Source: Thermoplasmatota archaeon
Lineage (GTDB): Archaea; Thermoplasmatota; Thermoplasmata; Thermoplasmatales; Thermoplasmataceae
Assembly: GCA_023487205.1 (NCBI GenBank)
Contig: JAMDBT010000035.1
Coordinates: 1-51,252, forward strand
Direction of reading: 5' to 3'
Length of the DNA: 51,252 nucleotides
Made by a program: the position numbers and the translations under genes. The notes below the pieces were generated by a model. It was not told the DNA's origin. It ran no database searches and was given only the letters and a program-made list of their open reading frames with translations. Below, one piece after another: positions 11,042-50,130 of the stretch (positions are counted from its first letter, which is position 1; every line of letters begins with the position of its first letter).

Positions 11042-14000
11042 TTTTTCCGCCCCCGTATGCTTGCGACAACGAGGCCACCGACCACGGAACCGATTGTGAT
11101 GATTATGCCTATGAACAGCGTCATCTCCGGGTTTCCACTATAATTGGCAATCACGGAATTTCCGGTGGGATATGTCGTGAGCACGGGAATATTAGGATAT
11201 TGCGGAATAAGGTGAAGACTCTTCGTGGAATTCTGCAAAGTGGCATAGACGGTGACGGACGGCGGAGTAGACTGGGAAGTCCCATTAGGCGAAAGAACGA
11301 GATAAACTGTGGCAGTCTGGTTCATTATCAATGTCAGTTTCGACTCGGTGATGTTATTATATGAGAAGCTCAGGTTCCAGCCAGTATACAGTGACTTGTT
11401 CGCGGATAAGTTTACAGTTTCCTTTCCATTGCCAGTGTTCCCTACCTGGAACTGAACATAAATGTCCTTCTGGTGAGGCTCTCCCACAGTATTGATTGTC
11501 GTCAACGTGAAATTGTAAACCTGAACTACATTAACGCTCAAGTCGCCGGTATAATTGTCAATCCCATAATTTACCGTAACCGGGATGCTATCCTTACCTG
11601 CCGGGGCATACCTGGAGATGTTGACCGTAACGTTGACCGTTATGTTCTTACCGGGTGACATGGATTTAGACGTGGTCTTGTTGAAGACCATCCCCCACGA
11701 ACCGTTTCCCGAGGAAAATGTCACGTTAGCAAAAGATTTGCCCGTATTGTTCAGGTAAAAGGTAAAGTTTGCCTCTGACCCGGGGAGAACGCTAGACTTT
11801 GGCCCGGCAAGCTGGCCCAAGTCGAAGGCATATCCGTAATTCCTCTGCAGGCCCAATGTGATATACGTACCGTATGACACGACAGCAGTAATGTCACTTT
11901 GGTACGTCGTGGTGAAATTAACACCGTCGTAGGTGGCATTGTATGATTCGGATGCCGAGAATCCATAAGATTGCAATCCAAGGAATATGCTTCCGACGGA
12001 ACTGTTGATCATCATTTTGAAGTTGCCTCTAATTATAGTCACATCAGTATTGATCAACTTGGTACCTACTGAAACCGCAATACCTGCCACCGTACCCGGA
12101 CTCATTGTTAAATTGAGCGGATTTGTTCCAGAGAAAGCGGAAATCTGGTCAGTTCCGGTGAATATCGTGCCCGCAGAGGGATTGATCGCATAGATGGAGT
12201 ACGATCCCGACATAACCCCCACGCTGTACCATCCGCTTGCGTTAGCTATCGTGGAGTTAACGTAGAGTCCGCTTGAATTGAGAACGGTTACATTGGTATA
12301 GGGAACAACAGCGAGGCCATTCAGCGCATATCCATCCATGTAATCAATGAATTTGTTCGCAGCAACGCTTACGTTAATCCTTTCTGCGCCCGACACGGAA
12401 AAGAGTGTCGTTCCGAGTATCTTGAAGTCTCCAGAGCGATTGGATTCCAGGAACTGGAACAGGACCGAATACGAACCTCCGGGAAGACTGTAGGAGCCAC
12501 CAGTCAGATTGAGCCTGGCGTTTCCGTAATTGAGGTAATAATTACCACTCTGGATGCTCTTGGAGTTCGTGAATTGCACGCTGTACGAGGTGCCGAACGG
12601 TAAGGAAAGTGTGGCGTTCTTGTTCAGGCTAAGTTCCTTGATCGCAGATCCGGAGGGCCCCGAAGCATACACAGTATAGTTACCGATTGGAACCGGTTCT
12701 GCCTTGCTGAACCGGGTTCCAGTGGCATTGAACAGGGTAATGTTTGTTGCGCCATTCACGCCCACGGAAATGTCTACGCTTACCTGTATGTTAGTAGATT
12801 CGTTCGCCCCCTGAACTGCAATCAGTGCTGGCGTTGGATCCAGATATGCCTCACTGCTTGAGAATGCGAGAGTGTAAATTCCCGGGGAAACGCTTCCCGA
12901 AAACGTCCCATCTGTCATTGGAATGGAGTAGTTAGACGTACCCGAAAGTCTAGCATTTCCGGTATAGTTGGCAATCCCATCTCCAATCAGCAGGTCCGCT
13001 GAAATCTGGTACGTGCGAAGGCTCGCGTGGACTGCAATTGCAGGTGACGATACCGACGCTGATGAAGTGTAGAAGTAGGGACTGACATAGACGGCCCGGA
13101 GCCCCGAACTTATCGAAGATGGGTAGTACAATGCTACCGTTCCGGATGCAGGTACTCTCTGGAAGGAGTACATCGTTCCTCCTCCCCACACTTCAATTAC
13201 ACCGGAATCCAAAAGGCTCGTTCCACCGCTTGTTGAAGAATATACGGACACGGACAGGTTTGCGTTTAGATTCATGGTTATATTCATCGAAATACTGGAG
13301 TAGATGCTGATGACTTTCGTTCTCGAATAAACGACACCCACCGATACACCCTGGGACTCTACCGTGTAGGTACCCTTTGGAATAAGGATAGAGGTCTGAC
13401 TGTACGGACTTAGGTAATAATCCTGAAGCCACCCATCTGATCCAATTATCTCATAATACCCGCTGAACGTCCCATTTCCTGGGACACCAGCAGTGAGATT
13501 AACAAACACTCCTTGCGAAAGGCTCATTGAAATGTAGGTGGATGAATTCAGAATGAAACTATCCAAGGCAACGCTGCTTCCACGTACGGCATATAGAGTA
13601 TATACTCCCAGCGGAAGAGAGATCGCAAATGACCCGTTCGAAGTAGTTGTTGTGTTCCAAGAGGTCCCTGTTACGCCATTCTGGAAAAATTGGATGCCCG
13701 TCGGGCTGCTAATCCCACCAATAATTCCACTAACTGTCGCCGTGGGCAAAGGGGTAAGATTCACGGTCTCATTCAGATTCCATGCCGCGAAGGTAGCCTG
13801 CTGGATTCCAGATACCAGGCCTTTGTCTGATAGGTAAATGCCATAGGTGCCGGGGTTAACCCAGAAGTTTGCAAATCCCGTTGCATTCGTGACATTATAC
13901 GCGGTTCCTGACGGACCTTGCAACGCTACACGTACATCAGGGAGACTTTTGGCACCCAGCTGCGCGCTGACAAAGATAGAGTTTTTCTCAATGATCAAGT

Positions 14001-17000
14001 TCTGATTCAGGGTCAATCCGTTGCTGACTAAAATGTTGTTAATCCCACTGTACGTTGACCCGCCCGTGGTTATGTTAACAGAGTAGTTGTAAAGCGGAAG
14101 ATTCGCAAAATTGTAAGATCCTCCCACAATGGGCACCGAGAACGAGACGTCATTGGATGCATTGTAAAAAGTGACGGACCCGGAATCAATGGTTCTGGTA
14201 AAGTCAGGAGCTACTTTTTCTCCTTTCTGGTAAGGCGCAGCCTGAAACTGAAACTCTACAGCCCCGGAGACCTTGGTGGATCGTAACTGAAAATTCTTCA
14301 CTATGAAATAACTGGGCAACCCGTCGTTAGAGTTAACCCCCAGTGAGGTTCTTTCGGCCTGGGCCTGACTCACATAAACCTTGCTGTACTGAAGCGAGGT
14401 GGTTCCAGCGTCGAATACCTTGTTATACTTCCCAGTGCTGAAAAGCAGGGTATCATTTCCAGGCACTGCTGTAAGGTTGTAATATCCATTGGCATTCGTG
14501 GCAACTGTGTCGTGCGGAATTCCGTACTGGTCGAAAAGTGTGGCGTATATGCCTCCGTCAGGCTGCCCATTGGGCAACGTAACCCTGCCGGTGACTGTGG
14601 CTCCCGGATAGTACCCCACAATCGTATCCGATCCGCTGACAATCTGGTTTGTTGGCGGGAAGATGTATGTCGTACCAATATTCTTCGTGTGATAATAGTA
14701 GGCCTGCTGCAATGGAATGATCTGCCACGCGCCAGTATGGTTCTGGTAGTTCGTGTAAGGATTCCACGGGATTCCCATGTAAAGGATTTCGAAATGGCTC
14801 ATGTTGTGCGCGGGCATTATGGAGTATGTGCCCTGCCCGAACGTGAGTCCTGGAATACCCGAAGTATTCCCTGTATCGTATGGGGAATAACCGAAGAAGA
14901 ACCGATATATGGAAGTGTTGTAGAAGTCCGGTTTGTAATTTATATTATAGTTCACGGGAACCGCACCGTTTGGAAGTTTGTTGAGTGAATAAGTTGATCC
15001 GTTGGCAACTATTGCCGTGATCTGATAGTAATTATATGGAACGACTTCACCGTTGCTGGTATAGCTCGGCCTATCCGTAAGGTACGTCGGAGCATAAAAT
15101 ATGCCGGGGTTTCCTCCAGACAGGGGAATAAGGGAGTGATCGATTCCCACGTATTTTATGTTGTAACCCGTAATTCTTTCCAGTAAAGTGTAAAGATTGA
15201 CGATGGTGGAAGTTGGGTACATATAAGAGAGCTGCCCTGCGACGAGGGCAAAATATGCATTCTCACTGGAAATGCTTGAAATGAATGGACCGTATTCCTT
15301 GGGGTTTTCCGAGATCAGGTTCGAGAAACCGAGCGGGTTGGCCGCAATACGGGATATATTACTAGCCTCTTTCCAGCCGAGGTACTGGGACAAAGCATTC
15401 ATTATGGTCTGGTTATAGGAGGAACCGCTGTGGACATATGCTCCTTCCAGGACACGTGCAGTGAAAAGGGATATGTCCTGGCTCTGGTTCTGTGCTAGAA
15501 GTACCTGGCCTGCAACTTCATATCCCTGCTGGAAGTCGTCGGCAACACTGGGATGATGTCCCTGTGACATCTCCTGAAATCCATAATCCCACCACGAGAC
15601 ATATGCCGGTCTCTGGTTCATAGGCACATTCGTATCTTGCGTCGATAGCCACGAAAATGCCCGGGACAGCGGTGTGGTTGAATTAGTTATGAAAAACCCT
15701 GATGCCCCAGCAAACTGCGGATTGGACGAGGAATAATTCGCAGGCTTCAGGAACGACGGCAAATCATTGTAAATTTGTTGATTTATTGGGTTTGCTGAAT
15801 TCGCAGGAACCCCCGAAGTTACGGTTTCGAAGCCCGATGGTATTACCAGCAGAACAACTATCGATATCGAGAACAGTGCAGTAATCCAGTTGTGCCCGCC
15901 CTTGAGCTTTCTGAAACCGGTTCTTGTAGTATCCCTCTTGGATAGTTGTTTGTCCACCTGGAGAATCCCGATAAAGTAGGAAAGCAAGGCTGCCCCCAGG
16001 ATTGCGTATGCAGGAGCTGCGGTTACGTTGAACCGTGCCGCAGCAAAGCTCATATAAATAGAAACAAGTGAAAACACCAGGAGATACGTCTGGGTATCCT
16101 TTCTCTGCCTCACGAACTGATACGCAAGATAAGCGACTCCCCCCATTCCCAGGATGAATTGCGCGGCGCCAAATCCGGAAATGTACTGACCGAGCTGTGG
16201 GGCAGCAGCCTCAGCAATTGTCGCGTATACCCTGGACTTTATGAAGTAGCCTTCCCCACTGAGCAGGGACTGAAGTAGTGCAGGTTTGAAAACCTCAGCA
16301 GCACCTATGATTGCCAGAAAAACGATCGCGAATGAAGGAAGACTCAGGAGCCAGGGTCTTCCAGATAAAAGGGACATAAATAATCCAAACAGGATAACAC
16401 CGAGTCCGAGGTACAGGGCCGGGTAGTACCAGTAATTGGCGAATCCAGTTGAGACTCCGTCATAATAGTAGAGCGACATCAGAAACGAAATGGAGACGTA
16501 CAGAATTGTCAGGACATTGATGTAGACAAAACTACGCTTCATGAAAATGTTGACTATAATCTGTACAAACGCGTAAATCAGCACTATGGCCTCTATGTAC
16601 GCATATCCCTGCCAGGAAAGCATCAGCCCCCCCATAGAAGCGCCAGACAGGGCACCATATATCAAACCGAGCCGGTTATTTGCGAGATATGCCATTAGTG
16701 CAGATGGCATCTTCCGAATTTCACGCAAGCTGGGGCCCAGAAAATCTTTGGACATGGTGTTTATGGCCTTTCCGAAGAAATAAATGGTAAAAAAGGCAAA
16801 TATTAGTTCTGGAGTATGCATTCTTCCATCCGACAGGACCCCTGAGGAAAGGTTGCTGGGCATCAATGTGTACAGTATCGCAGCGATCGCCCCGGTCTTT
16901 TTCCCAAAGACCTCAGCCGCAATGAGATATACCGGGATGATCAGGAGCGCCCCGAAGACCGCGTCAAATTCAAGGAATGTGAGTTTCGCCGGATACAGAG

Positions 17001-17337
17001 CACCGCCCATGAAAGGCGCCAGCACCTCAGCTATGAATACTATGAAAAGGTGAAAGAAAGGCGGCCTCGGATTTAGAGCGCCTATTGGGTAATTTAGAGA
17101 ATAATCGTAGTAAATCCAGTGATGGTCCTGGATAAAAGTGGAGATTAACCTGAAATTGTAGTATGGATCACTTCCCCCCGAAACATACAGCCCGGCACCC
17201 AGGGAAGAGGAAACCGAGAAATAGTTCGCAAGGAACAGGTAGAGTGTCATAAGGAGTGCGAGAATTGCCACTTCCGGGTTGCGACCAAAAAAATTCTGCA
17301 ATCTTTGCAGCGAAGATTCGTGAGCGTCTTCCATCAA
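11038..17337 (-). CDS. aglB: Oligosaccharyltransferase AglB/STT3 fused to a giant beta-sandwich ectodomain
   Basis: A 2099-residue protein. Residues 1-905 are an archaeal STT3/AglB, which transfers a lipid-linked glycan to Asn in N-x-S/T sequons on the outer face of the membrane. It has about 12-13 membrane helices (to about 502) and the first-loop acidic motif S-D-P-Y-Y-N-F (56-62). The T-I-A-E motif lies at 373-376 and the hallmark W-W-D-Y-G at 582-586. A possible DK-type motif, G-I-D-H-S-L-I-P, lies at 731-738. From about 910 onward come roughly 1150 extra residues of repeated beta-sandwich segments: carboxypeptidase-regulatory-like units (V-T-G-R-V-T-L-P-N-G) and PEGA or CNA-B-like units (G-x-Y-x-[VL]). 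NEW3/CARDB-like modules near 1820-2050 come before a final membrane helix and R-G-R-K-K. Usual AglB length is 800-1000, so this is more than double. The extension is dense in sequons, so the enzyme may modify itself. Confidence 0.93.
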   Translation of the reverse strand: MMEDAHESSLQRLQNFFGRNPEVAILALLMTLYLFLANYFSVSSSLGAGLYVSGGSDPYYNFRLISTFIQDHHWIYYDYSLNYPIGALNPRPPFFHLFIVFIAEVLAPFMGGALYPAKLTFLEFDAVFGALLIIPVYLIAAEVFGKKTGAIAAILYTLMPSNLSSGVLSDGRMHTPELIFAFFTIYFFGKAINTMSKDFLGPSLREIRKMPSALMAYLANNRLGLIYGALSGASMGGLMLSWQGYAYIEAIVLIYAFVQIIVNIFMKRSFVYINVLTILYVSISFLMSLYYYDGVSTGFANYWYYPALYLGLGVILFGLFMSLLSGRPWLLSLPSFAIVFLAIIGAAEVFKPALLQSLLSGEGYFIKSRVYATIAEAAAPQLGQYISGFGAAQFILGMGGVAYLAYQFVRQRKDTQTYLLVFSLVSIYMSFAAARFNVTAAPAYAILGAALLSYFIGILQVDKQLSKRDTTRTGFRKLKGGHNWITALFSISIVVLLVIPSGFETVTSGVPANSANPINQQIYNDLPSFLKPANYSSSNPQFAGASGFFITNSTTPLSRAFSWLSTQDTNVPMNQRPAYVSWWDYGFQEMSQGHHPSVADDFQQGYEVAGQVLLAQNQSQDISLFTARVLEGAYVHSGSSYNQTIMNALSQYLGWKEASNISRIAANPLGFSNLISENPKEYGPFISSISSENAYFALVAGQLSYMYPTSTIVNLYTLLERITGYNIKYVGIDHSLIPLSGGNPGIFYAPTYLTDRPSYTSNGEVVPYNYYQITAIVANGSTYSLNKLPNGAVPVNYNINYKPDFYNTSIYRFFFGYSPYDTGNTSGIPGLTFGQGTYSIMPAHNMSHFEILYMGIPWNPYTNYQNHTGAWQIIPLQQAYYYHTKNIGTTYIFPPTNQIVSGSDTIVGYYPGATVTGRVTLPNGQPDGGIYATLFDQYGIPHDTVATNANGYYNLTAVPGNDTLLFSTGKYNKVFDAGTTSLQYSKVYVSQAQAERTSLGVNSNDGLPSYFIVKNFQLRSTKVSGAVEFQFQAAPYQKGEKVAPDFTRTIDSGSVTFYNASNDVSFSVPIVGGSYNFANLPLYNYSVNITTGGSTYSGINNILVSNGLTLNQNLIIEKNSIFVSAQLGAKSLPDVRVALQGPSGTAYNVTNATGFANFWVNPGTYGIYLSDKGLVSGIQQATFAAWNLNETVNLTPLPTATVSGIIGGISSPTGIQFFQNGVTGTSWNTTTTSNGSFAISLPLGVYTLYAVRGSSVALDSFILNSSTYISMSLSQGVFVNLTAGVPGNGTFSGYYEIIGSDGWLQDYYLSPYSQTSILIPKGTYTVESQGVSVGVVYSRTKVISIYSSISMNITMNLNANLSVSVYSSTSGGTSLLDSGVIEVWGGGTMYSFQRVPASGTVALYYPSSISSGLRAVYVSPYFYTSSASVSSPAIAVHASLRTYQISADLLIGDGIANYTGNARLSGTSNYSIPMTDGTFSGSVSPGIYTLAFSSSEAYLDPTPALIAVQGANESTNIQVSVDISVGVNGATNITLFNATGTRFSKAEPVPIGNYTVYASGPSGSAIKELSLNKNATLSLPFGTSYSVQFTNSKSIQSGNYYLNYGNARLNLTGGSYSLPGGSYSVLFQFLESNRSGDFKILGTTLFSVSGAERINVSVAANKFIDYMDGYALNGLAVVPYTNVTVLNSSGLYVNSTIANASGWYSVGVMSGSYSIYAINPSAGTIFTGTDQISAFSGTNPLNLTMSPGTVAGIAVSVGTKLINTDVTIIRGNFKMMINSSVGSIFLGLQSYGFSASESYNATYDGVNFTTTYQSDITAVVSYGTYITLGLQRNYGYAFDLGQLAGPKSSVLPGSEANFTFYLNNTGKSFANVTFSSGNGSWGMVFNKTTSKSMSPGKNITVNVTVNISRYAPAGKDSIPVTVNYGIDNYTGDLSVNVVQVYNFTLTTINTVGEPHQKDIYVQFQVGNTGNGKETVNLSANKSLYTGWNLSFSYNNITESKLTLIMNQTATVYLVLSPNGTSQSTPPSVTVYATLQNSTKSLHLIPQYPNIPVLTTYPTGNSVIANYSGNPEMTLFIGIIITIGSVVGGLVVASIRGRKK

Positions 17338-22683: not shown

Positions 22684-22956
22684 ATGGAGATCACCCTGAT
22701 CCTGCCGGGAAACGAAAGCGGTGCCGAAGTCAGGCTGAAGAACAGTTTCATAGCTTCAAGGAATCCACTATTCATTGGATTCATAGTCAACCCGGGAGAG
22801 CCTGCCTGGCAGGTGTTTCAGGCATCAAAGAACGTGCTTCTCGCAATTAGCGGAAATAAGTACTCCTTTAGGGTCGAGTACAGGATAGACATCGGGGAGA
22901 ACACTCTATTTTTCGCACGGCCTGAGGAAGGGTCTTCCATCAGCCTGGCCGATTAG
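22684..22956 (+). CDS. Small protein of unknown function
   Basis: A 90-residue protein not matched to any family I recognise. The sequence alternates hydrophobic beta-like stretches (I-T-L-I-L-P-G, F-I-G-F-I-V, V-L-L-A-I, Y-S-F-R-V-E-Y, N-T-L-F-F) with short polar turns, and no long helix or membrane span is visible. A small all-beta or alpha/beta domain is likely. The amino-acid mix looks like a real protein rather than random frame. A weak TATA-like TCTTATTA (22653-22660) precedes the ATG by about 27 bases. It is single, divergent from the zinc-ribbon operon, and its stop overlaps the convergent site-2 protease by 4 bases. Confidence 0.5.
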   Translation: MEITLILPGNESGAEVRLKNSFIASRNPLFIGFIVNPGEPAWQVFQASKNVLLAISGNKYSFRVEYRIDIGENTLFFARPEEGSSISLAD

Positions 22957-23549
22957 AGGAATTGGTCTATGACATTCATGACAACGGCGAATGCCATGAC
23001 TACCAGGTAGACCTCCTTGTTCCATTTCCAGACCTTGAGGCCGTCAAGCATCCATATGGGAATCATATTGAAGAGCCCAAACCAGAGGTTGAGGGCGCCG
23101 ACATAATACAGGAAGTACCCTGGAAGCCCGCCCACAAAATATACCGAGATAATGAACAGGGTGGTGCCCACCGAAATATTCCACACCGGACCCGCCAGGG
23201 CCACCTTCCCTACCCTGTCATTCTCGAACACTCCTGAAAAGTAAACCGCACCCGGCGCCGCAAAAATAAGTCCGAAGAAAGAGGTGACCAGCGCTAGAAG
23301 CGCCCCTGTGGGCCATAGCTTGAAGCGGGAATATCCGCCAAAGTATCTTGCTAAATGTCTGTGCATGAGTTCATGGCCGAGAAAGGCGGTCAGGGCAACT
23401 ACTACTGCAAGGGAAAGGGCATATTCCAGTGAAAGACCGCTTCTCGTAATAAGGCCGTAAAACAGTATTGTTAGCGCAGCAGCCAGGACAGCGAACGCGA
23501 CTGCGATGTCCTTTACTTCGTCCCGACTGAAGGGCTCAATAAAATTCAA
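22953..23549 (-). CDS. Site-2 protease family (M50) intramembrane metalloprotease
   Basis: A compact 198-residue M50-type zinc protease with about five or six membrane helices. The zinc ligands are visible as H-E-L-M-H (59-63), and the third ligand as N-M-I-P-I-W-M-L-D-G (Asn161 to Gly170, Asp169). Catalytic residues are therefore intact. Enzymes of this group cut transmembrane segments, usually to release regulators or clear signal-peptide remnants. There is no PDZ, CBS or HTH domain. The TTG start (23547-23549) overlaps the stop of the large TPR gene as TTGA, so the protease is translated in step with that protein. The TPR protein could be its adaptor, but this is only suggested by coupling. 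Confidence 0.88.
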   Translation of the reverse strand: MNFIEPFSRDEVKDIAVAFAVLAAALTILFYGLITRSGLSLEYALSLAVVVALTAFLGHELMHRHLARYFGGYSRFKLWPTGALLALVTSFFGLIFAAPGAVYFSGVFENDRVGKVALAGPVWNISVGTTLFIISVYFVGGLPGYFLYYVGALNLWFGLFNMIPIWMLDGLKVWKWNKEVYLVVMAFAVVMNVIDQFL

Positions 23550-26500
23550 GTTCCGCCACCGGGCCGATTGATAGAATACAGATAGTTCATTAGCGCAAGG
23601 ATGTCCATTGCCTGTGAGATTCCAATCCTCAAGGCATATGCGATTTCAAGGGGATTTGGCTTCACTCCCAGCCTTACGGCAGACCTCAGGAGCTTGCTGT
23701 TCTCCGAATTGTTTGGGTCCGGGCTCCTTTTCGCCTTTGCCTTCTTTCGTATATATGTGTACAGATTCTTCGCGACAATTATGTCCTTGCTGTCCAGATT
23801 GGCATAAATTACGTTTATTTTCAGGTCTGGCACACCCGCTGCTTTTCCTTTCTTCACTGCTTTCTGTATGATGTCCCTGGACAGGATTTCGTACTTGTCC
23901 TCATTGATGTCCGAGTAGTAACCCTCCTCATCAAGAAAAGCATAGATCCGATCCACCGTGTCTATGGGGATTCCCGCAAACGATACGGCCTTGTCCGGGT
24001 CGAGCACCTTCCTCACTCTGTATTCCGTGAGGAGCAATTTTTCAGCGTAGGAGGTGATCTTAAAGAAGTTCCTTCTCACGGACATTTCCTCATTCAGTTC
24101 GTCAAATGTCTCCTGGTTGAGAACGCCCCCCTGGTTCGAACCCATCAGCTTTTCCGCCATATCGAACTCGTTCCTTTCCATGTAGCTCCTGATCACGAAT
24201 CCCGCGTTCTCCCCGGTAAGTGGCTCTTTCATTGTCTCGAACAGGGAAGTGACCTCTGTAAAATAACCGTTGCCAAAATAGGTCTTGATAAGTGTGTTTA
24301 ACGCCGACTTGCTGTCTTCCTGATTTCTTGCTGACTTGACCGCTTTCTTCAGCACTTCTATTGAGTTCTCGGTCCTGCCCAGATAATCGTAGAGCCTTGC
24401 AAGCGCCAGGCTGTTTTCTATTTCACCCGGATATGCCTTCATGAGCGCTTTTCTTACGTCGATCGAACCCCTTATGTCGTTGGACTTTTCCTGCTTCTCG
24501 GCAATGATAGATCCCAGGCGGTAATCCTTTGTCCTCTTGTAAATGGCAAAAGCCGTTTCCCTTATTTCCCGGTTGGCCCACAGCTTCTCGCAGATGATCT
24601 CAAAACCTTCCAGAAAACCGTCACTTTTCCAGTCTTCCGCCTCCATGAATTCCTTAATGTGGTCGATTCGCAAAGCGGATACAAGCAACCTGGCTAGCAG
24701 CGGCAAATTTGGACTCATGCTAGCCAGCAGTTTTTCAGCCTCATCGTACCTCTTCAGGTCGATCAGGGCTTCCGCATATTCGGGCATCATGGACGGGTGT
24801 CCCCCCTTATCCACTGCCCTCTGGAAATACCTGAGGGCGTCTTTCTTCTTCCCGTTGAGGTAATACAACTGACCCAGCGATCTCTCAACGTGCATCGTAT
24901 CGAATCTCGGCTCAAGCGCCTTCAGGACCGTGATTGCGTGATCGTACTGCCCAATTGAGACCGACACGGACGCCAGGCGTAGGAGGTCCCATTCAATGAC
25001 ATCCTCGGAACCGCACAGCGAGTCAATGATCCTGGCAGCGTTAAGGTAGTCCCCGGACCAGGCATAGCCCTCCGCCACCATGCGAGCCACCCATGGCGAA
25101 TCGGATTCATGATCCTTGATTACGTCAAAAGAATCCGTGATAATGGATCTCAGGTTCCTTTCCTGCAATATTATTATAGCCTTATCCCCCGGGATCCCAG
25201 ATAGCGTTCCAATGGATGAAAATGAAGATAAGCACAACTTGGCCTCCGCTACATCGGCATCGTCAACGCTGATGCTGAACATCGCTGCCAGGAAGTGCGC
25301 ATTTGTCAGATTCCTAAGTGCCCGCTCAAGATGCTTTCTTGCCTGAATCTTGTTGCCACCACCCTGGGAGATCAATGCCCTTTCGTATTGCACGAACGCG
25401 CTCTCGCTCTTGGGGTCGGCCGTCAGATCGAGAACTGTTTCTGCTTCCTTGAGGCGCTTAAGCCCCACAAGTCTTTCCACCATGGGGAACATGAAAAACT
25501 CCGAGTCTCGCAAGTCTGCAAGATCTTTTTCCGTTTCCAGGGACCGGACCAGCTCCACCATTGATAGGACAGAAACAAATTGCCGCCTTGTCAGGAGTTC
25601 ATGCAATTCTGTACCCGGCGCACCTTGAAGAACCGTGTATTTAGCCAGCGCCCATGCAAGGGCTACTGACCCGGTTTCACGGATCATTGACGTTAGATCC
25701 TCCAGATTTGGAGCATGTACACCCCGGATTTCCCAGATCAGGCGCGAGATTATCTCCCTTGACCTCCCCGACACATTAAGCCCGAGAAGGCCGGAAATGT
25801 GTTCGTTGGTCCTGAAAATGAGGAAAATGGCATCAAGGATCTGGCCCTTCATCAACAATGATGGCTCCTTTTCCAACGCGTAAAGTGCCTCATCCTTTTT
25901 TCCAAGAAATATGGACGCGGACACATAGAAGACAGTCTGGGATTCAGTATGCGAGGAGGCCCGCTCGTACCTTTCAACGAGCTTGTCGTACTCCCTGAGG
26001 CTGTAAAGCGTGGAGATTACCAGATCCATGGATTTCTCATTTGAAACGTCAAGCGACAGAATTTTTTCAGCGGTTTCCATCGCGGAATTCTGGTCGCCGA
26101 GCGTCATCTCGAGGTCCAGCTTGAGTTCCAGGTAAGCTTTATCTTCGCCGAACCTCTGGGCACAGACCATAAGCTCTTTTTTTGCATCTTCGAACCTGGA
26201 AAGGGCCATCTCGGCAGCAATGCGGCTCTTAAGGGCTTCCAGATCGGCAGTCTCAACAGGAGGCGCCATCTGGAGAACGCCGTCATAATCGTTGAGTTTC
26301 AGCTTGACAAGGAGCAATTTTGGGACTATATCCTGACGATCGCCCCCAAGTGATAGAGCCTTCTCGTAGCACGCTGAACTGTCAGCATATCTCCGCTGCT
26401 CATAGAACACTTCAGCAAGGTCGATCAGGGGACCCGGCTTGTCAGGTTCCAGTTCTGCCTCTCTTCTTGCAGCCCTGAGTGAAATTTCAAGGTCTCCGAT

Positions 26501-27229
26501 TTTCTTGCCCGCCTCGATCGCTACCTCCAGCAGTCTGCCCCTCATCGAATTGACGGGGATTTCTCCGAGGTATTTCCTGAGAAAATCGGTGTTGTTAAGT
26601 GCCAGAAACATCGAAACGAGAGAAATGAGCAGGTCCTCATCGTTCCAGCGGGCATACATGGCCTCCAGTACTTTTGCCGATTCACTGGACGGCACACCGG
26701 AAGTAATCCTCTTCAAGATGCCATCAACCTGTTCGCGGGATTCTGCCTGGCCTACTGCCCTCAGGTAAAGTTCAACCGAGACCACGCCGTTGGAAGCGAG
26801 GAATTCCGCTGCCCTTACAAAATCCTTTTCGCTGGTTGCAGCCCTATCTACGATTGAAATAAATCTCGCATAATTTGCGAATCTCCTGTCTGATAAAATC
26901 TTGTGGAAGGCTTCCTTCCTTCTCCCCTCACCAATCAGCGATTCAACCTCAAGAACTGAAGAAAAGAAGTTCAACTTCTCACTGGACTTCAACACCTTCA
27001 TAACGTCGCTTTTCTCGTTGCTGCTTACCAGGGGAGATTCCATGAAAACAATGAGCGAATCCAGGAGATATTGATCGGCCTGCTCATCCTGTGTTCTGAT
27101 CAATTCATTTATGGACTCTACCAGCTTTTCAAATTTCCGCCTGGACAGTTTTTCCGGTTCACCAACTGTGAGACCGGTGATCGACGTTACAATCTTCCTG
27201 GATACCTTGGTCTGTTTCTGATCTGCCAT
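23546..27229 (-). CDS. Giant TPR-repeat protein (1227 residues)
   Basis: A long soluble protein built almost wholly of helical tetratricopeptide-like repeats. Typical units include P-L-I-D-L-A-E-V-F-Y-E-Q-R-R-Y-A-D-S (about 268-285) and L-G-Q-L-Y-Y-L-N-G-K-K-K-D-A-L-R-Y-F-Q-R-A (about 788-808). Another is R-L-Y-D-Y-L-G-R-T-E-N-S-I-E-V-L-K-K-A. The last 250 residues look different, with a winged-helix-like part (T-V-D-R-I-Y-A-F-L-D-E-E-G-Y-Y) and an ending I-G-I-S-Q-A-M-D-I-L-A-L-M-N-Y-L. No signal peptide or membrane helix is seen. TPR solenoids are protein-binding scaffolds, and no enzymatic motif is visible. An SD-like GGAG lies about 8 bases before the ATG. A long inverted repeat sits just upstream (27248-27281). 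It is followed by the coupled S2P gene. Confidence 0.8.
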   Translation of the reverse strand: MADQKQTKVSRKIVTSITGLTVGEPEKLSRRKFEKLVESINELIRTQDEQADQYLLDSLIVFMESPLVSSNEKSDVMKVLKSSEKLNFFSSVLEVESLIGEGRRKEAFHKILSDRRFANYARFISIVDRAATSEKDFVRAAEFLASNGVVSVELYLRAVGQAESREQVDGILKRITSGVPSSESAKVLEAMYARWNDEDLLISLVSMFLALNNTDFLRKYLGEIPVNSMRGRLLEVAIEAGKKIGDLEISLRAARREAELEPDKPGPLIDLAEVFYEQRRYADSSACYEKALSLGGDRQDIVPKLLLVKLKLNDYDGVLQMAPPVETADLEALKSRIAAEMALSRFEDAKKELMVCAQRFGEDKAYLELKLDLEMTLGDQNSAMETAEKILSLDVSNEKSMDLVISTLYSLREYDKLVERYERASSHTESQTVFYVSASIFLGKKDEALYALEKEPSLLMKGQILDAIFLIFRTNEHISGLLGLNVSGRSREIISRLIWEIRGVHAPNLEDLTSMIRETGSVALAWALAKYTVLQGAPGTELHELLTRRQFVSVLSMVELVRSLETEKDLADLRDSEFFMFPMVERLVGLKRLKEAETVLDLTADPKSESAFVQYERALISQGGGNKIQARKHLERALRNLTNAHFLAAMFSISVDDADVAEAKLCLSSFSSIGTLSGIPGDKAIIILQERNLRSIITDSFDVIKDHESDSPWVARMVAEGYAWSGDYLNAARIIDSLCGSEDVIEWDLLRLASVSVSIGQYDHAITVLKALEPRFDTMHVERSLGQLYYLNGKKKDALRYFQRAVDKGGHPSMMPEYAEALIDLKRYDEAEKLLASMSPNLPLLARLLVSALRIDHIKEFMEAEDWKSDGFLEGFEIICEKLWANREIRETAFAIYKRTKDYRLGSIIAEKQEKSNDIRGSIDVRKALMKAYPGEIENSLALARLYDYLGRTENSIEVLKKAVKSARNQEDSKSALNTLIKTYFGNGYFTEVTSLFETMKEPLTGENAGFVIRSYMERNEFDMAEKLMGSNQGGVLNQETFDELNEEMSVRRNFFKITSYAEKLLLTEYRVRKVLDPDKAVSFAGIPIDTVDRIYAFLDEEGYYSDINEDKYEILSRDIIQKAVKKGKAAGVPDLKINVIYANLDSKDIIVAKNLYTYIRKKAKAKRSPDPNNSENSKLLRSAVRLGVKPNPLEIAYALRIGISQAMDILALMNYLYSINRPGGGT

Positions 27230-44093: not shown

Positions 44094-46628
44094 ATGGAAA
44101 AAAATAATGCACTGACCCTTGACTTCTTCATCGGGAATGATTTCGAACGCAAGAAATGCCCAAAATGCGGATCAATCTTCTGGACTCGGGACAAGAAAAG
44201 GGTCACGTGCGGGGAGTATCCGTGTGACCAGTACTCGTTCATAGGCAATTCCCCGTGTAGCAAGAACTATGATGTGGATGGAATGAGAGACCTCTTCATC
44301 TCATTCTTCTCAGATACTCATAAGGTGGTGAAAAACTATCCCGTTGTTCCCAGGTGGAGGGACGACGTTCTACTCGTAAACGCGTCCATTTACGACTTCC
44401 AACCGCACGTAACGATGGGGTATGCAAAACCTCCAGGAAATCCAATAGTGATGTCTCAGCCATGCGTCCGCATGACCGACCTGGACGAAGTGGGCAGGAG
44501 TTTGAGGCACACTACGGGTTTCGAAATGATGTGCCATGATGCCTTCAATTACCCCGGGAACAGGGTGTACTGGAAGGAAGAGACAACGGAGTACTGTGAC
44601 CGGTTCCTCACGGAAGCGCTGGGAGTTGACCGAATGAGAATCACGTACAAGGAGAATCCGTGGGCCGGCGGAGGAAATGCCGGCAACGCAATTGAGGTCA
44701 TAGTTGATGGACTGGAGGTAGCAACCCTGGTTTTCATGGACCTTGTAGAAGACCCTCAGGGGAGCATCGAGATGGATGGAATCAAGTATTCCAAAATGCC
44801 GCTAGAGGTCGTGGACACGGGATATGGATTGGAGAGGCTTTCGTGGTTGTCCAAGGGATCAGCCAACGTACTGGAAGCTGTTTATCCTGCAATACTTTCG
44901 TTCCTCAGGTCTCGAATGGGTGGCGAAGAAGAATCACCGGAAACTCAAAGGGAGCTTTCGATTCTGGCTGATCACTCAAGAACCATTCTTTTTCTCCTTT
45001 CGGATTCCGTCATACCAAGCAACGTCAAGGTCGGATATCTCGCAAGGCTTCTGATAAGGAGGAGTTTCAGAAGCATAGATGCTTCGGGGGTGAAATGCAG
45101 TGTTATGGACCTGATCCGCGAACAACTCAAGGCCTACGGCAAGATTCTGCCTGGCTACTCCGATAGCTTTGCCGAATCGATAATTAAGGCGGAGGAGGAG
45201 AAATACGTAAGCAGCGTCGCGAACGGAACCGCAGCAGTTGAAAGAATTTTCAGGAAAAAGAAGTCTATTTCTCCTGATGACCTGGTAACTCTATACGACT
45301 CCAACGGACTACCTCCCGATTTGGTGAAGTCCTTGCTGGAAGAGAAGTTTCACTATACCGTCAAGATTCCCGAGGATTTCCACAAGAGGGTTGTCTCGCT
45401 ACACGCTATCTCGAAGAAGGAAAAGCCAGCCAAGATAGGCTTTCCCGCCATAGAAACTAGGCCGCTCTACTATGACGATACCTCAATCAAGGATTTCACT
45501 GCCATAGTCCTTGCTTCGGGCGACGGATTTGTTATTCTGAATCAGACGGCATTCTACCCTGAGGGAGGAGGCCAGCCCTGCGATCTGGGTTATCTGAGGG
45601 TTGGAAACCGGGATATCGAGGTGACCAGCGTCCAGAAAATCGGAAAGGCGATATTCCATTACGTAAAGGAAACCATCCCCGAAAAAAGCAGGGTTCACGG
45701 ATACATAGATTACGGCAGGAGACGCCAACTGATGATCCACCATTCCGCCACTCACCTTATCCTGGGAGTCATGAGGGAACTATTGGGCAATCACGTTTGG
45801 CAGAGCGGAGTACAGAAGGAGGTGGATTATTCAAGAATTGATATTACCCACTTTTCGAAACTCAGCAGAGAAGACATTGAAAGGATCGAGGCACGATGCC
45901 TGGAAATTATCGGCCAGGACAGGATCATAAAGGTCATGAACCTTGAATGGAACAAGGGACTCGAAAAGTACGGGTTCAGACTTTTCCAGGGTGGCGTGCC
46001 ACTCAGTGACAAGATACGCATCGTGGAGATCGACGGAATAGACGTCGAAGGATGCGGTGGGACACACCTTTCGCACACTTCCGATATGAACATGGTCAAG
46101 ATCGTATCAACGGAGTCCATTCAAGAAGGCATCCAGAGAGTGATATTTGTGGCCGGGCCGGCTGCGCTCAGGAACTTCAGGAACACACTTGAGATTTCCA
46201 AACAGATACAGGACATTGTTCACTCCAGGGTTGACGACATGCCCGGAAGGATTATGAGCATCATCGAAGGATCTGCCCAGCAAAAAAGGGAGTCCGCGGT
46301 ATTGAAGAATAAATTGCTGGATAGCTATTTCAATGGATCGGGCAGCCACAGGATTGGGGAGATCAGCGTCTATGTGAACGAGAGCGTCCTCCCCGAAGAG
46401 GTTGAAGACCTGTTCATACCCAGGGTTCTGGGCATGAAGAATTCTGTAGGAATTGCGCGAACGGAAAGTAAAGACTTGCTGGTTGTCTCCTCGGTCTCAA
46501 CCGCTAAAGAAATATGTAAGAAGATCGCCGACGGCAAGAATACCAATGTTACCGGAACCGACAGGGTCGCGAGAGTTGCATTGAGCGACATTCCCACTGA
46601 AAAGATAATAAGCAGGATTTCTGATTGA
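44094..46628 (+). CDS. alaS: Alanine--tRNA ligase (archaeal type)
   Basis: AlaRS charges tRNA-Ala and edits Ser/Gly mistakes. At 844 residues it is slightly shorter than many archaeal forms (about 900). An N-terminal zinc ribbon C-P-K-C-G-S-I-F-W is typical of archaeal AlaRS. Class II motif regions include R-M-T-D-L-D-E-V-G and G-Y-G-L-E-R-L-S-W. The editing domain has H-H-S-A-T-H and C-G-G-T-H-L-S-H, which supply zinc ligands. The C-terminal C-Ala domain ends I-S-R-I-S-D. A TATA-like CCTTAATAT (44052-44060) lies about 38 bases before the ATG, leaving a short leader. It is followed by the degenerate S2P gene 12 bases later. Confidence 0.96.
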   Translation: MEKNNALTLDFFIGNDFERKKCPKCGSIFWTRDKKRVTCGEYPCDQYSFIGNSPCSKNYDVDGMRDLFISFFSDTHKVVKNYPVVPRWRDDVLLVNASIYDFQPHVTMGYAKPPGNPIVMSQPCVRMTDLDEVGRSLRHTTGFEMMCHDAFNYPGNRVYWKEETTEYCDRFLTEALGVDRMRITYKENPWAGGGNAGNAIEVIVDGLEVATLVFMDLVEDPQGSIEMDGIKYSKMPLEVVDTGYGLERLSWLSKGSANVLEAVYPAILSFLRSRMGGEEESPETQRELSILADHSRTILFLLSDSVIPSNVKVGYLARLLIRRSFRSIDASGVKCSVMDLIREQLKAYGKILPGYSDSFAESIIKAEEEKYVSSVANGTAAVERIFRKKKSISPDDLVTLYDSNGLPPDLVKSLLEEKFHYTVKIPEDFHKRVVSLHAISKKEKPAKIGFPAIETRPLYYDDTSIKDFTAIVLASGDGFVILNQTAFYPEGGGQPCDLGYLRVGNRDIEVTSVQKIGKAIFHYVKETIPEKSRVHGYIDYGRRRQLMIHHSATHLILGVMRELLGNHVWQSGVQKEVDYSRIDITHFSKLSREDIERIEARCLEIIGQDRIIKVMNLEWNKGLEKYGFRLFQGGVPLSDKIRIVEIDGIDVEGCGGTHLSHTSDMNMVKIVSTESIQEGIQRVIFVAGPAALRNFRNTLEISKQIQDIVHSRVDDMPGRIMSIIEGSAQQKRESAVLKNKLLDSYFNGSGSHRIGEISVYVNESVLPEEVEDLFIPRVLGMKNSVGIARTESKDLLVVSSVSTAKEICKKIADGKNTNVTGTDRVARVALSDIPTEKIISRISD

Positions 46629-46640
46629 AGCGATGATTGA

Positions 46641-48365
46641 TTGATAACGCGACAAGACCTTGAAATCATAAGGAAGGTGGTTTCGAAACACTACAGGATA
46701 ACTGAGCCCGACGAGGTTTCATACCCGGTCTCGTACAGGATCAAGGACCTGGACGTTCTACCTGAATCCATGTTTCGTGGACTGCTGGACGACCTTGAGA
46801 AGTACGGATTTGTTGCGTTCACCGATGAGGCGGATGAGAACAAAATTTACATAATCAGGGGATCTGAAGGGGAAAACCGGGAGCTGATCAGGCTCTTGCT
46901 TTTCTTTCTGACTATCCTCAGCGTACTTTATGCAGGTTACCATTATAGCTCGCTCTATTTCTCAAACAGTCCCTCATTTATTCTATTTGCTTATTCATCC
47001 CTGCTTTTCTTCGTGCCCATCTACTGCATCCTGATGTCGCGAGAATTCGCAAGGTATATCATAACAAGAAAACACAATCTCGAATACTCATTCCCGATAT
47101 TTATTCCGGATCCAATATTCTTTGGCTGCCTTGGATCCATTCCGGTGGTCAGGCAGGGTTTCAGGGACAGGGAGACAATGATGGAAACCGGGCTGTATCC
47201 GTTGATTACCGGTTTCCTGGTCTCGATCGCCATCGTGATGATTGGTACTCTGTCCAGTTTGACACCGGTTCTAAACGCCCCCTCAAATTTCCCCACCAGT
47301 TCCTGGGGGTTCCCGGTCATCCTTTCTCCTGCGATTGCCATGGTTTCCGGCAGCTATGGTGTCCTGAACCCAATACAGTTCGCTGGATGGTCGGGGATCA
47401 TAATGAGCGGTTTCAATGCTCTTCCTCTGGGATATCTGGACGGTGGCCTTGTCTGGAAGGGACTGGCAGGCAGGAAAACGCTGATGGCTAGATACCCAGT
47501 AATGATCTCCCTGATAGTTCTTGGACTGTTCTTTCCAGAGTTCGTGATATTGCCTTTGGTTGTGTTGGTTCTTGGCCTGAGAGGGCCTGAGCCCCTGATA
47601 ATTTCTTCACCTTCAAAATTCGGCAGGCTGGCTGTACTCGCCATATGCGGAATCATACTGGCGGGCGGATTAATCCCGTTTCATTATAGCCCTCCTTCGA
47701 ACAAGTTCAGCGCTTACGTCCTTGAGCCGGTCTCGATAGTTTATCTGAATTCTGACAGGAACGCGAGCTTCGACCTGATGGTGGAGAATCTTGGCACGTC
47801 GTCCATACAGCCATACTTTACAATATTGAATCTCCAGAATGGAATTAATGTGTCAGGTCCGCCTGGTTCGCTGACCCCCCAAGGTAATGGTCTATACGCG
47901 GTGCAATTCAGGCCGCCGCAAGAAAGCACTGTTGGTATCACTAATTACACTCTGGCAGTATCCTCAGGGATTAACACCGAGAACCTGGGGGTTTCAGTGC
48001 TGACAATAAACCTGTCCAACGATTATCTTCTCGATGGGAAAAATGGTCCTCTGAAGATGGAGTCTGCCACTAGCACAGATTTCAATTTTACCCTGTCTGC
48101 TAATTATTCCGGGTCTCGCAATCTCTCGCTTTTTATAATACCGGAGGTCTATTCCAATTACTCAGTGCTGATTTCAAACATGAGCCTTAGGATACCTTCC
48201 GGGACGCTGGGTTCCGTGTATCCTTATTCCGACAGTTTTCAGCTTGCCGGGAGAAAAACCATTTCCCTGGATATCAAAGTTAGCGGGGGGCAGAATGAGA
48301 TAGACATTTTCTTTGTCGATATGCACTATCAGGGGGCAGCCTCTTACGTGACCTTCAAGTTATGA
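46641..48365 (+). CDS. Site-2 protease homologue without catalytic histidines
   Basis: A 574-residue membrane protein with an N-terminal helical domain (about 1-75) like that of archaeal S2P homologues. A membrane region (about 82-340) matches M50 proteases, and an extracytoplasmic C-terminal domain (about 345-574) has Asn-rich, CARDB/NEW3-like beta strands. The expected HExxH reads R-E-F-A-R (134-138): both histidines are arginine while the glutamate remains. The second motif F-N-A-L-P-L-G-Y-L-D-G-G is intact with Asp267. Zinc binding is therefore unlikely and the protein is probably a non-catalytic relative. Start is TTG at 46641. The DUF2070 gene follows after seven bases. Confidence 0.8.
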   Translation: MITRQDLEIIRKVVSKHYRITEPDEVSYPVSYRIKDLDVLPESMFRGLLDDLEKYGFVAFTDEADENKIYIIRGSEGENRELIRLLLFFLTILSVLYAGYHYSSLYFSNSPSFILFAYSSLLFFVPIYCILMSREFARYIITRKHNLEYSFPIFIPDPIFFGCLGSIPVVRQGFRDRETMMETGLYPLITGFLVSIAIVMIGTLSSLTPVLNAPSNFPTSSWGFPVILSPAIAMVSGSYGVLNPIQFAGWSGIIMSGFNALPLGYLDGGLVWKGLAGRKTLMARYPVMISLIVLGLFFPEFVILPLVVLVLGLRGPEPLIISSPSKFGRLAVLAICGIILAGGLIPFHYSPPSNKFSAYVLEPVSIVYLNSDRNASFDLMVENLGTSSIQPYFTILNLQNGINVSGPPGSLTPQGNGLYAVQFRPPQESTVGITNYTLAVSSGINTENLGVSVLTINLSNDYLLDGKNGPLKMESATSTDFNFTLSANYSGSRNLSLFIIPEVYSNYSVLISNMSLRIPSGTLGSVYPYSDSFQLAGRKTISLDIKVSGGQNEIDIFFVDMHYQGAASYVTFKL

Positions 48366-48372
48366 CCCGAGA

Positions 48373-50130
48373 ATGCCCGGTGAGCCAACAAATATAAGCG
48401 ATAACCGACTTGCAGGGAAATTGAACAGGGACCTCAGCGATCTCACAAGATTCATAATGTCTTCCCCCCGGTACAGGTTCTATGCCATTCCACTCCCTGT
48501 AATTTTCGCACTTGACTCGATCTTTCTTCTTAATTTCTACGAGATAACAGCAATCCTGGCATCCTTTTTCGGAGGAATATTGCTTGACCAGATTATGATC
48601 AGGGCGACGAGAGTGTTCTTTCCTTTAAGGAGAACGGTATTTCTCAATTTCTTTCTGCTTTCGTCCTGGAGCCTGCTCTTTATTCTGGCTTCTGCATTCG
48701 GCTATCTTTTTCGGCTACCTTACCCATTCATCGCGTTTTTCATACCTTTGACCGCAATGGTAAGGGCCATTGTCCTGTATCCATATTTCTCGGAACGACC
48801 CTATAGTGAAATTGTTCCGTCATTCAATTCCGTAATTCCGTTTGCCCTGGTTTACTTCATTTTTATTCCCAACACCGATCTATTTGAGAAGGTCGTCGCT
48901 GTCTCGCTTATATTCGCCTTCGCAGGTGTTTTGTTCACAAATGTGAGCGTCCTTCCGTTCGTGAAAAAGTATGCCGTCAGCCCGGTTAAAGCAATGAATT
49001 TTGTCCTTAATTTCAGGTCTAGCAAAGACGTGAGAGATCGGGGACACGAATTCTTTCAAGAACTCTATTCAAGAGAGAGGGAAGTGCCGGTCAAGGTTGT
49101 CGACGTGCTGAAGACTGACGGCACCAGAAAGGTTGCCATGATCTTTCCATACGTCCATCCGGGACCTTTCGGGAACTATGGTTCAAGCAATCTTCCGCGC
49201 AGGCTTGCGGAAAAACTTGGTTACTCAGGGGGACCCTTGATGGTTTTTCACACCGCCACCACCAACAGCAACAACTGCAGGGGAGACGATGATGTGGAGA
49301 GTGTTGCAGACGCAGTTAGAAGGGCATTGGCAAATGCAGTAAATGTGGAACTGGTTTCATCCTACAAACGCATAAAAGTTGCTGGGCACTACGTTGGGTT
49401 GTTAAGACTTGGAGAATCCCTCATCGTTTCGTTCATACCTGAAGAGAGACACTTTGACGATGTCTATCTTGATGAGGCACTTGGATTTGAAGCCTCCCTG
49501 AAAGGTGCAGGCATTAAGGAAGTAATATGCGTGGACGCACAGAATTCGTTCACTGAGAGGGCTACTTCGCTGGGAGAACTTGGAAGGTTTGTCTCCGGCG
49601 TAACTAGGGAATATTCCAGGCTGAGTGAAGCAGTCAATCCCGAAGTAGGATACGGCAGTTCCTCATTGTCCACCCCAGGTCTTGGGCCAATGGGTGTAAG
49701 TGCGATTACATTCAGGTCCGGAAGAAAGTCCACGGTCATTGTCCTGACCGACTCCAACAACATAATGTCAGGAGTCATGAGCAAGGTCAGGGAAAGAAAG
49801 GGACCCGAATTTGATCACATAGAACTTTTCACTACAGATAACCACTACGTCAACGAAAACACCCTTGACATGAACCCGCTCGGAAAGAGAGACAATCAAG
49901 ACTTGGTGGTTGATGCCATTGTCGCTGCCATAGACCAGTCTCTGGCAGACGCCGGACCAGCGGTGGTGAAGATGGGCAGGTCCTCTGCGGTGGTGCATAT
50001 GGGAGAAGAAGGAATGTTCAGCGACCTTCAGGAAACTGTTTTCCAGTCCCTCAGGCTTGCAAAGAGGATGATAGCCGTAAGCTCGGTCCTGGGGATTGTC
50101 CTCTCAATTGCAGCCTTCTACTTCATCTGA
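48373..50130 (+). CDS. DUF2070 membrane protein
   Basis: A 585-residue protein of the archaeal DUF2070 family. Function is not known. The N-terminal 220 residues contain about six or seven membrane helices. The soluble remainder is a single large domain with conserved-looking polar motifs: Y-V-H-P-G-P-F-G-N-Y-G-S-S-N, then F-H-T-A-T-T-N-S-N-N, V-D-A-Q-N-S-F, L-T-D-S-N-N-I and T-D-N-H-Y-V-N. Clustered His, Asp and Asn of this type often line a metal-dependent active site, so an enzymatic role is a reasonable guess. The last residues form another membrane helix. ATG is chosen, 7 bases after the degenerate S2P gene. The stop overlaps the convergent aroC by 8 bases. Confidence 0.85.
   Translation: MPGEPTNISDNRLAGKLNRDLSDLTRFIMSSPRYRFYAIPLPVIFALDSIFLLNFYEITAILASFFGGILLDQIMIRATRVFFPLRRTVFLNFFLLSSWSLLFILASAFGYLFRLPYPFIAFFIPLTAMVRAIVLYPYFSERPYSEIVPSFNSVIPFALVYFIFIPNTDLFEKVVAVSLIFAFAGVLFTNVSVLPFVKKYAVSPVKAMNFVLNFRSSKDVRDRGHEFFQELYSREREVPVKVVDVLKTDGTRKVAMIFPYVHPGPFGNYGSSNLPRRLAEKLGYSGGPLMVFHTATTNSNNCRGDDDVESVADAVRRALANAVNVELVSSYKRIKVAGHYVGLLRLGESLIVSFIPEERHFDDVYLDEALGFEASLKGAGIKEVICVDAQNSFTERATSLGELGRFVSGVTREYSRLSEAVNPEVGYGSSSLSTPGLGPMGVSAITFRSGRKSTVIVLTDSNNIMSGVMSKVRERKGPEFDHIELFTTDNHYVNENTLDMNPLGKRDNQDLVVDAIVAAIDQSLADAGPAVVKMGRSSAVVHMGEEGMFSDLQETVFQSLRLAKRMIAVSSVLGIVLSIAAFYFI

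What the first reader, a model, noticed from the sequence alone, without database searches (positions are those of the whole stretch)
46641..48365. Site-2 protease relative with both zinc-binding histidines replaced
HExxH reads R-E-F-A-R while the partner motif with Asp267 is kept. The protein also carries an N-terminal helical domain and an external beta domain. Loss of both histidines but retention of the fold recalls inactive rhomboid relatives that control membrane proteins without cutting. A second, intact S2P occurs in the same window (22953-23549).
Basis: partly seen in the sequence, partly recalled or inferred. Interest (0 to 1): 0.65.

Follow-up and report, generated by a model that had tools for sequence, protein, structure and literature searches.

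The report
Archaeal zinc-less site-2 protease relative
A whole family of acid-loving archaea carries a membrane-protease relative whose two zinc-holding histidines have both been fixed as positively charged residues, so it probably binds membrane proteins without cutting them while a separate shorter copy keeps the cutting site.

Summary
Confirmed and enlarged. The 574-aa protein at 46641-48365 reads R134-E-F-A-R138 where active site-2 proteases (M50) have HExxH, and keeps D267 of the LDGG motif. It is neither a sequencing error nor a recent mutation. In the window's family (77 genomes, 19 genera, Thermoplasmatales) 75 of 77 carry this long form with [RK]-E-x-x-[RK]; none carries HExxH in it. 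E135 and D267 never vary. Outside the family, 92 of 92 relatives read in 86 genomes have HExxH. The gene sits directly behind AlaRS, the place held by the intact long S2P in related families, and shares its N-terminal domain and glycosylation-prone Ig-like ectodomain. A second, shorter paralogue elsewhere in the genome keeps HExxH and lacks the ectodomain. The AlphaFold core matches solved S2Ps best, and the gene is under strong purifying selection. The likely reading is a non-cutting client-binding pseudoprotease that arose in archaea, analogous to plant EGY3 and animal iRhoms. Client and partner are unknown, and a rate-covariation test gave no support for pairing with the short paralogue. 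One EGY3 paper calls EGY3 the only S2P pseudoenzyme; my searches found no archaeal one in print.

The parts
46641..48365 (+). Gene of the zinc-less S2P relative (574 aa, TTG start, 12 bases behind the AlaRS stop codon)
46641..46871 (+). N-terminal cytosolic-type alpha/beta domain (residues 1-77), shared with intact long S2Ps of other families and with the short paralogue
   Evidence: hhalign 97.6% / E 1.4e-11 against out-family forms; helices and strands in the model
46872..47684 (+). S2P membrane core (residues 78-348)
   Evidence: AlphaFold core pLDDT 82, pTM 0.82; M. jannaschii S2P 3b4r Z 10.8, 184 aligned, rmsd 4.6
47040..47054 (+). Former HExxH: R134-E135-F136-A137-R138
47094..47141 (+). 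Re-entrant beta hairpin (residues 152-167), the part that holds substrate in SpoIVFB; P152, P156, P158, G162, G165 kept at 90% or more
   Evidence: strands 153-157 and 162-167; conservation; role in SpoIVFB from PMC11486902
47415..47447 (+). Partner motif N259-A-L-P-L-G-Y-L-D267-G-G; D267 invariant, while Q265 and H270 of active forms are lost
47685..48362 (+). External tandem Ig-like domain (residues 349-574; modules about 349-457 and 461-574), rich in N-x-S/T sequons
   Evidence: homologous to the ectodomain of intact long S2Ps (99.4%, E 5.5e-21)
44094..46628 (+). Context: alanyl-tRNA synthetase, the conserved upstream neighbour

Best explanation
This is a family-wide, selected S2P pseudoprotease. 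SHOWN: the ancestor-like gene (N-domain, S2P core, Ig-like ectodomain, behind AlaRS) is an intact-motif S2P in related families; in this family the gene in that place has lost both zinc histidines and other active-site residues, while a shorter copy without the ectodomain keeps HExxH. INFERRED: it binds no catalytic zinc and does not cut. The buried charge of the site is kept in another way: Zn2+ plus Glu plus Asp becomes two basic side chains plus the same Glu and Asp, so the two Arg/Lys probably form an ionic lock that ties the old HExxH helix to the LDGG turn. The kept re-entrant hairpin and cleft, with the outward ectodomain, then serve to catch and hold membrane-protein clients (shield them, chaperone them, or hold them for another factor) without hydrolysis, as iRhoms and EGY3 do in other folds or lineages.
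For: 75 of 77 family genomes with [RK]ExxR/K, E135 in 75 of 75 rows, D in 77 of 77 rows, pairs RK 42, RR 31, KK 2. One clade, support 100/100, in a tree without the motif columns. Of 65 columns at 95% or more in 54 active forms, 17 are kept at 90% or more (E135, D267, G268, G269 and the hairpin P/G among them) and 19 are lost, including H134, H138, Q265, H270, H315. dN/dS 0.045-0.23 in the 8 of 13 close pairs where dS could be computed; in all 8 the TM core has lower dN than the ectodomain. S2P fold. AlaRS behind-placement 35 of 35 and 22 of 24 in intact long forms of related families. Ectodomain homologous and sequon-rich, 4.35 per 100 aa against 0.37-0.57 elsewhere. Zinc-free SpoIVFB still holds its substrate through the hairpin (PMC11486902, passages).
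Against: No biochemistry: zinc content and proteolysis untested. No client, partner or phenotype is known. Mean column identity is lower than in active forms (36% against 57% and 50%), so constraint on surfaces is looser. The rate-covariation control gave no support for pairing with the short paralogue (partial r -0.12).
Confidence: 0.6

Rival explanations
1. Split system: the ancestral enzyme was divided in two. The short HExxH paralogue does the cutting, and the zinc-less long form is its recognition or gating subunit that brings the ectodomain.
For: Complementary loss: one keeps the motif and has no ectodomain, the other the reverse. Both occur together in nearly all genomes: short HExxH read in 70 of 77, and the seven genomes with no short match are 62-84% complete.
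Against: After control for AlaRS, DUF2070 and an unlinked M50, pairwise distances of the zinc-less core and the short form are not correlated (partial r -0.12, 30 genomes). The genes are not neighbours (short next to AlaRS 0 of 32). The tree neither shows nor rejects that they are sister clades (AU p 0.394).
Confidence: 0.2
2. It is an enzyme with a new, zinc-independent activity that uses the invariant Glu135 and Asp267 with the two basic residues.
For: E135 and D267 invariant; the cluster would be an unusual set of buried ionisable groups.
Against: No newly conserved nucleophile (Ser, Thr, Cys, His) among the 19 invariant columns; Q265, H270 and H315 lost; retention of Glu and Asp is explained by charge balance.
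Confidence: 0.08
3. It still binds a metal through other ligands and is an active protease.
For: Glu and the LDG Asp remain; PMC10354927 lists S2Ps of E-plasma simply as zinc proteases (passage).
Against: Both His ligands are replaced by basic residues in every readable row (75 of 75) and no His or Cys is newly invariant.
Confidence: 0.05
4. It is a decaying relic without function.
For: Faster evolution than the active forms (stem branch 1.48).
Against: Intact frame in 72 of the 77 genomes or more (one search lists the open frames), dN/dS 0.045-0.23 where computable, TM core dN lowest, 19 invariant columns.
Confidence: 0.02

Closest known systems
Intact long S2P of related Thermoplasmatales families (for example the Aciduliprofundum-sized genomes G040 and G044; name recalled from genome length)
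   Same: N-domain, S2P core, LDGG Asp, Ig-like ectodomain, place behind AlaRS
   Different: Has HExxH and Q-L-D-G-G-H in 22 of 22 aligned rows; the window protein has neither
Short HExxH paralogue of the same family (own genome: contig C31, 356 aa)
   Same: N-domain and S2P core
   Different: Zinc site intact (32 of 32 in A2), no ectodomain, other gene place
EGY3 of plants (S2P pseudoprotease)
   Same: S2P relative without the zinc motif; kept across a large clade beside active S2Ps (PMC10978774 and PMC9355673, passages)
   Different: Chloroplast protein of plants; PMC9355673 calls it the only pseudoenzyme of this family and found only in plants. The residues that replace HExxH in EGY3 were not compared here
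iRhoms (rhomboid pseudoproteases)
   Same: Catalytically dead intramembrane-protease relative thought to control membrane clients (PMC3149277, start of abstract in a search listing)
   Different: Rhomboid fold and serine-protease ancestry; this protein is an S2P homologue
SpoIVFB and M. jannaschii S2P (solved S2Ps)
   Same: Fold of the core and the re-entrant hairpin
   Different: Zinc ligands His, His, Asp present (PMC11486902, passages)

Membership tests
S2P / peptidase M50 superfamily (homology) | S2P membrane fold | tested here: met
   Foldseek top four are 3b4r and SpoIVFB (best E 7.7e-4, prob 1.00); VIA top seven all S2Ps, 3b4r_B Z 10.8, 184 aligned, rmsd 4.6
S2P / peptidase M50 superfamily (homology) | Sequence match to M50 | tested here: met
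   33 of 33 members hit PF02163 at E <= 0.1, best 7.9e-9; the window protein alone is just under the curated cut-off
Active M50 peptidase | HExxH zinc-binding motif | tested here: not met
   R-E-F-A-R; [RK]ExxR/K in 75 of 77 family genomes
Active M50 peptidase | LDG motif with the third ligand Asp | tested here: met
   D in 77 of 77 rows
Active M50 peptidase | Bound zinc and proteolysis | not testable with these tools
   Needs purified protein
EGY3-type S2P pseudoprotease | S2P homologue lacking the zinc motif | tested here: met
EGY3-type S2P pseudoprotease | Common descent with plant EGY3 | not tested
   No EGY3 sequence was fetched; the nearest relatives found are archaeal HExxH forms of the same order, which argues for a separate origin
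iRhom / rhomboid pseudoprotease | Rhomboid fold | tested here: inconclusive
   No rhomboid among the 50 rows, which is not an exclusion; the S2P homology is positive

The most novel reading that the evidence does not exclude
An archaeal S2P was split by duplication: the copy in the ancestral place gave up zinc and turned its metal site into a permanent ionic lock (two basic residues standing in for Zn2+ at unchanged net charge) and became a client receptor with its ectodomain, while the relocated copy kept catalysis without the ectodomain, so that regulated intramembrane proteolysis in these acidophiles is run by a dead receptor and a bare enzyme.
Probability: 0.25. Interest if true: 0.8.

Novelty: new variant of a known kind. 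Interest (0 to 1): 0.6.

Why it matters
Dead relatives of intramembrane proteases (iRhoms, Derlins; recalled) became important in cell biology, but for S2Ps a 2022 paper names plant EGY3 as the only pseudoenzyme, found only in plants (PMC9355673, passage). A second, archaeal case that is universal in a family, has its intact ancestor type still living in sister families at the same gene place, and has both metal ligands changed to basic residues, gives a clean natural experiment on what an S2P does without cutting. It also means that automatic annotation of these genes as zinc proteases is wrong, and it makes the question testable in culturable species such as Thermoplasma, Ferroplasma and Acidiplasma.

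Tried and rejected
Sequencing error or recent mutation: rejected. Misplaced motif: no other HExxH in the protein (read by eye). Replacement metal ligands: no newly invariant His or Cys. Pseudogene: rejected.

Co-evolution with the short paralogue: a first test with one control looked positive (partial r 0.42 given AlaRS, 0 of 2000 permutations as high). With DUF2070 and an unlinked M50 added as controls it vanished (partial r -0.12). I count this against the split-system reading.

Position of the zinc-less clade: the rooted tree leaves the branching order of zinc-less, short and out-family forms open. Zinc-less plus short as one clade costs 4.33 log units and is not rejected (p 0.394); short plus out-family forms together has only 78/87. 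So a duplication on the stem of the family is compatible but not shown. The zinc-less stem is very long (1.48), so attraction of long branches is possible.

Thermoplasma: in the T. acidophilum-sized genome (G151; identity recalled from its length 1,564,906) the upstream gene is a Cdc48-type AAA ATPase instead of AlaRS. An ERAD-like link (dead membrane protease plus Cdc48) was considered, but AlaRS stands there in the two other genomes of that genus examined with enough flank (L012, L013), so I do not rely on it.

The full-length model matched only Ig-like domains in the PDB, because the ectodomain fills the list; the core was therefore modelled alone. The weak sequence hits in the PDB (best E 0.013) are not informative apart from a marginal sialidase Ig-domain hit. 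Of the newer long-form loci (41 read), 12 show no AlaRS upstream, 11 of them with under 750 bases of upstream sequence held, so they were not used in the synteny count; L158 is the real exception.

Absence from print: searches, 92 of an open-licence library only; subscription papers and UniProt or MEROPS entries were not seen.

Full report
Observation. The gene at 46641-48365 encodes 574 aa. At the place of HExxH it reads R134-E-F-A-R138, and the partner motif is N-A-L-P-L-G-Y-L-D267-G-G. Pfam M50 covers only the second half. The gene lies between AlaRS (44094-46628) and DUF2070 (48373-50130), with chorismate synthase beyond. The genome holds four M50 places: this one, the small intact S2P at 22953-23549 (HELMH and MLDG), a 522-aa S2P on C34 (HEVMH) and a 356-aa S2P on C31 (HELGH).

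How widely fixed. A search of 61 genomes showed two classes in the window's family: a long form of about 550-600 aa and a short form of about 360 aa; genomes of other families of the order mostly have one long form. Reading the motif in 91 aligned proteins showed [RK]ExxR/K in all readable long forms of the family and HExxH in all short forms and all out-family long forms. A profile search of the family matched 77 of 77 genomes. After fetching the missing ones, 75 of 77 have a long form with [RK]ExxR/K (74, G036). The other two are G026 (motif reads N) and G021 (no long form found; 79% complete). No long form in the family has HExxH. Over 75 readable rows the pair 134/138 is R/K 42, R/R 31 and K/K 2, and 135 is always Glu; Asp267 is present in 77 of 77 rows. 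The short form with HExxH was read in 64 genomes and six more, partly in pieces; the seven genomes with no short match (G023, G024, G170, G177, G182, G189, G200) are 62-84% complete. Outside the family, 92 of 92 rows in 86 genomes have HExxH (phylum search of 116 genomes, of which 77 matched, and the out-family part).

Identity of the lineage. A scan of public genomes with a 13-row subset found 32 long forms in records named Thermoplasmata, Thermoplasmatales or Candidatus Thermoplasmatota, among them E-plasma, Acidiplasma aeolicum and clone ASS_A1, plus one unrelated actinobacterial hit. Contig lengths equate these three with G004, G035 and G010. NCBI places Acidiplasma in Ferroplasmaceae, Thermoplasmatales. 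The names Thermoplasma volcanium, T. acidophilum and Aciduliprofundum for G025, G151 and G040/G044 are recalled from genome sizes.

Origin. AlaRS lies directly upstream, same strand, in 35 of 35 long-form loci of the family, and in 22 of 24 out-family intact long forms (of the two exceptions one lies at a contig end); it does so in 0 of 32 short-form loci and 0 of 64 loci elsewhere in the phylum. Most of the out-family gene pairs overlap. The ectodomains of the two long types are homologous (hhalign 99.4%, E 5.5e-21), as are the N-domains (97.6%, E 1.4e-11), and the short form shares the N-domain. So the zinc-less gene holds the ancestral gene place and domain set. In a tree of the core with the motif columns left out, zinc-less (21 rows) and short (20 rows) are each one clade at 100/100; their order relative to the out-family forms is not resolved.

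Selection. Where synonymous distance could be computed, dN/dS of the zinc-less gene is 0.045-0.23 (8 of 13 pairs), against 0.040-0.043 for the short form (3 of 6 pairs) and 0.019-0.096 for out-family long forms (4 of 5 pairs). In the zinc-less gene the core has lower dN than the ectodomain in all 13 pairs. Of 65 columns conserved at 95% or more in 54 active forms, 17 remain at 90% or more and 19 are lost, among them H134, H138, Q265, H270, H315 and N84 (now Lys or Arg in 32 of 33). This is a changed and kept set of constraints, not decay.

Structure. AlphaFold on 33 sequences gave pLDDT 81.4 and pTM 0.64 for the whole chain, with a C-terminal tandem Ig-like domain that matches sialidase, pilus-chaperone and integrin Ig modules (best Z 10.1 over 97 residues, rmsd 2.4). 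The core alone gave pLDDT 82.0 and pTM 0.82; its best structural matches are M. jannaschii S2P (Z 10.8, 184 aligned, rmsd 4.6), SpoIVFB (Z 9.2 and 7.8) and the RseP/RasP entries (Z 6.8-7.4); the eighth row, not an S2P, has Z 5.5. The hairpin between helices 2 and 3 is predicted (153-157, 162-167). Sequons are ten times denser in the ectodomain than in the rest, as fits an outside position in these glycosylating archaea.

Mechanism. In S2Ps two His and the LDG Asp hold zinc and the HExxH Glu activates water (PMC11486902, passages, and established knowledge). Here both His are basic residues in every readable row while Glu and Asp never change. Zn2+, Glu and Asp sum to zero; Arg/Lys, Arg/Lys, Glu and Asp also sum to zero. 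I infer an ionic lock that replaces the metal as a structural pin. The same paper shows that zinc-free SpoIVFB still holds its substrate, which adds a strand to the re-entrant hairpin; the hairpin is kept here. The most likely work is therefore holding membrane clients without cutting. What the clients are, and whether the held client is protected, matured or passed on, is not known.

Tests against this reading. Rate covariation with the short paralogue is absent once three controls are used, so a fixed two-subunit protease is not supported by that test. The strongest residual covariation of the core is with DUF2070 (partial r 0.56), a neighbour in many genomes, which may reflect shared membrane or regional effects.

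What is in print. EGY3 is described as a pseudoprotease without the zinc motif (PMC10978774, passages) and as the only pseudoenzyme of the S2P family, found only in plants (PMC9355673, passages). A Thermoplasmatales genome paper lists the S2Ps of E-plasma as zinc metalloproteases (PMC10354927, one passage). A review of archaeal membrane proteases mentions S2Ps without noting inactive forms in the passages I saw (PMC4343526). Seven searches listed no archaeal S2P pseudoprotease. NCBIfam has no model that matches it.

Verdict. The finding is real, old and family-wide. It is a new variant of a known kind (dead relatives of intramembrane proteases), in a family where one plant case was thought to be alone. 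The inactivity itself is very likely; the client-holding mechanism is inference.

Noticed in passing
window 11041-17337 (-): A 2099-aa ORF with an STT3 oligosaccharyl-transferase N-terminal part (PF02516, E 1.9e-8) and a carboxypeptidase-regulatory-like domain (PF13620): an unusually long STT3.
   Followed up: partly
window 22953-27229 (-): The small intact S2P (HELMH) stands directly behind a 1227-aa TPR-repeat protein whose stop codon overlaps its start.
   Followed up: no
window 48373-50130 (+): DUF2070 membrane protein: its pairwise distances follow those of the zinc-less S2P core better than AlaRS, the short S2P or an unlinked M50 do (partial r 0.56, 30 genomes), also where the genes are not neighbours in some genomes.
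   Followed up: partly
L158 3398-5653 (-): In the T. acidophilum-sized genome the gene upstream of the zinc-less S2P is a Cdc48-type AAA ATPase (CDC48_N, two AAA domains) instead of AlaRS.
   Followed up: partly
L292 and L293 (G027:C1 1934722-1935210 and 695456-696109): The short HExxH paralogue of G027 is in two pieces far apart, one ending at the contig end, with overlapping coverage: assembly fault or real break.
   Followed up: partly
G028 (C1 and C15), G198 (C115 and C66): Two zinc-less copies in one genome: recent duplication or mixed bins.
   Followed up: no
L042 and L039 (G054, family f3): Two intact long S2P copies in one genome; the copy in L039 has no AlaRS upstream although 1.5 kb is held.
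   Followed up: no
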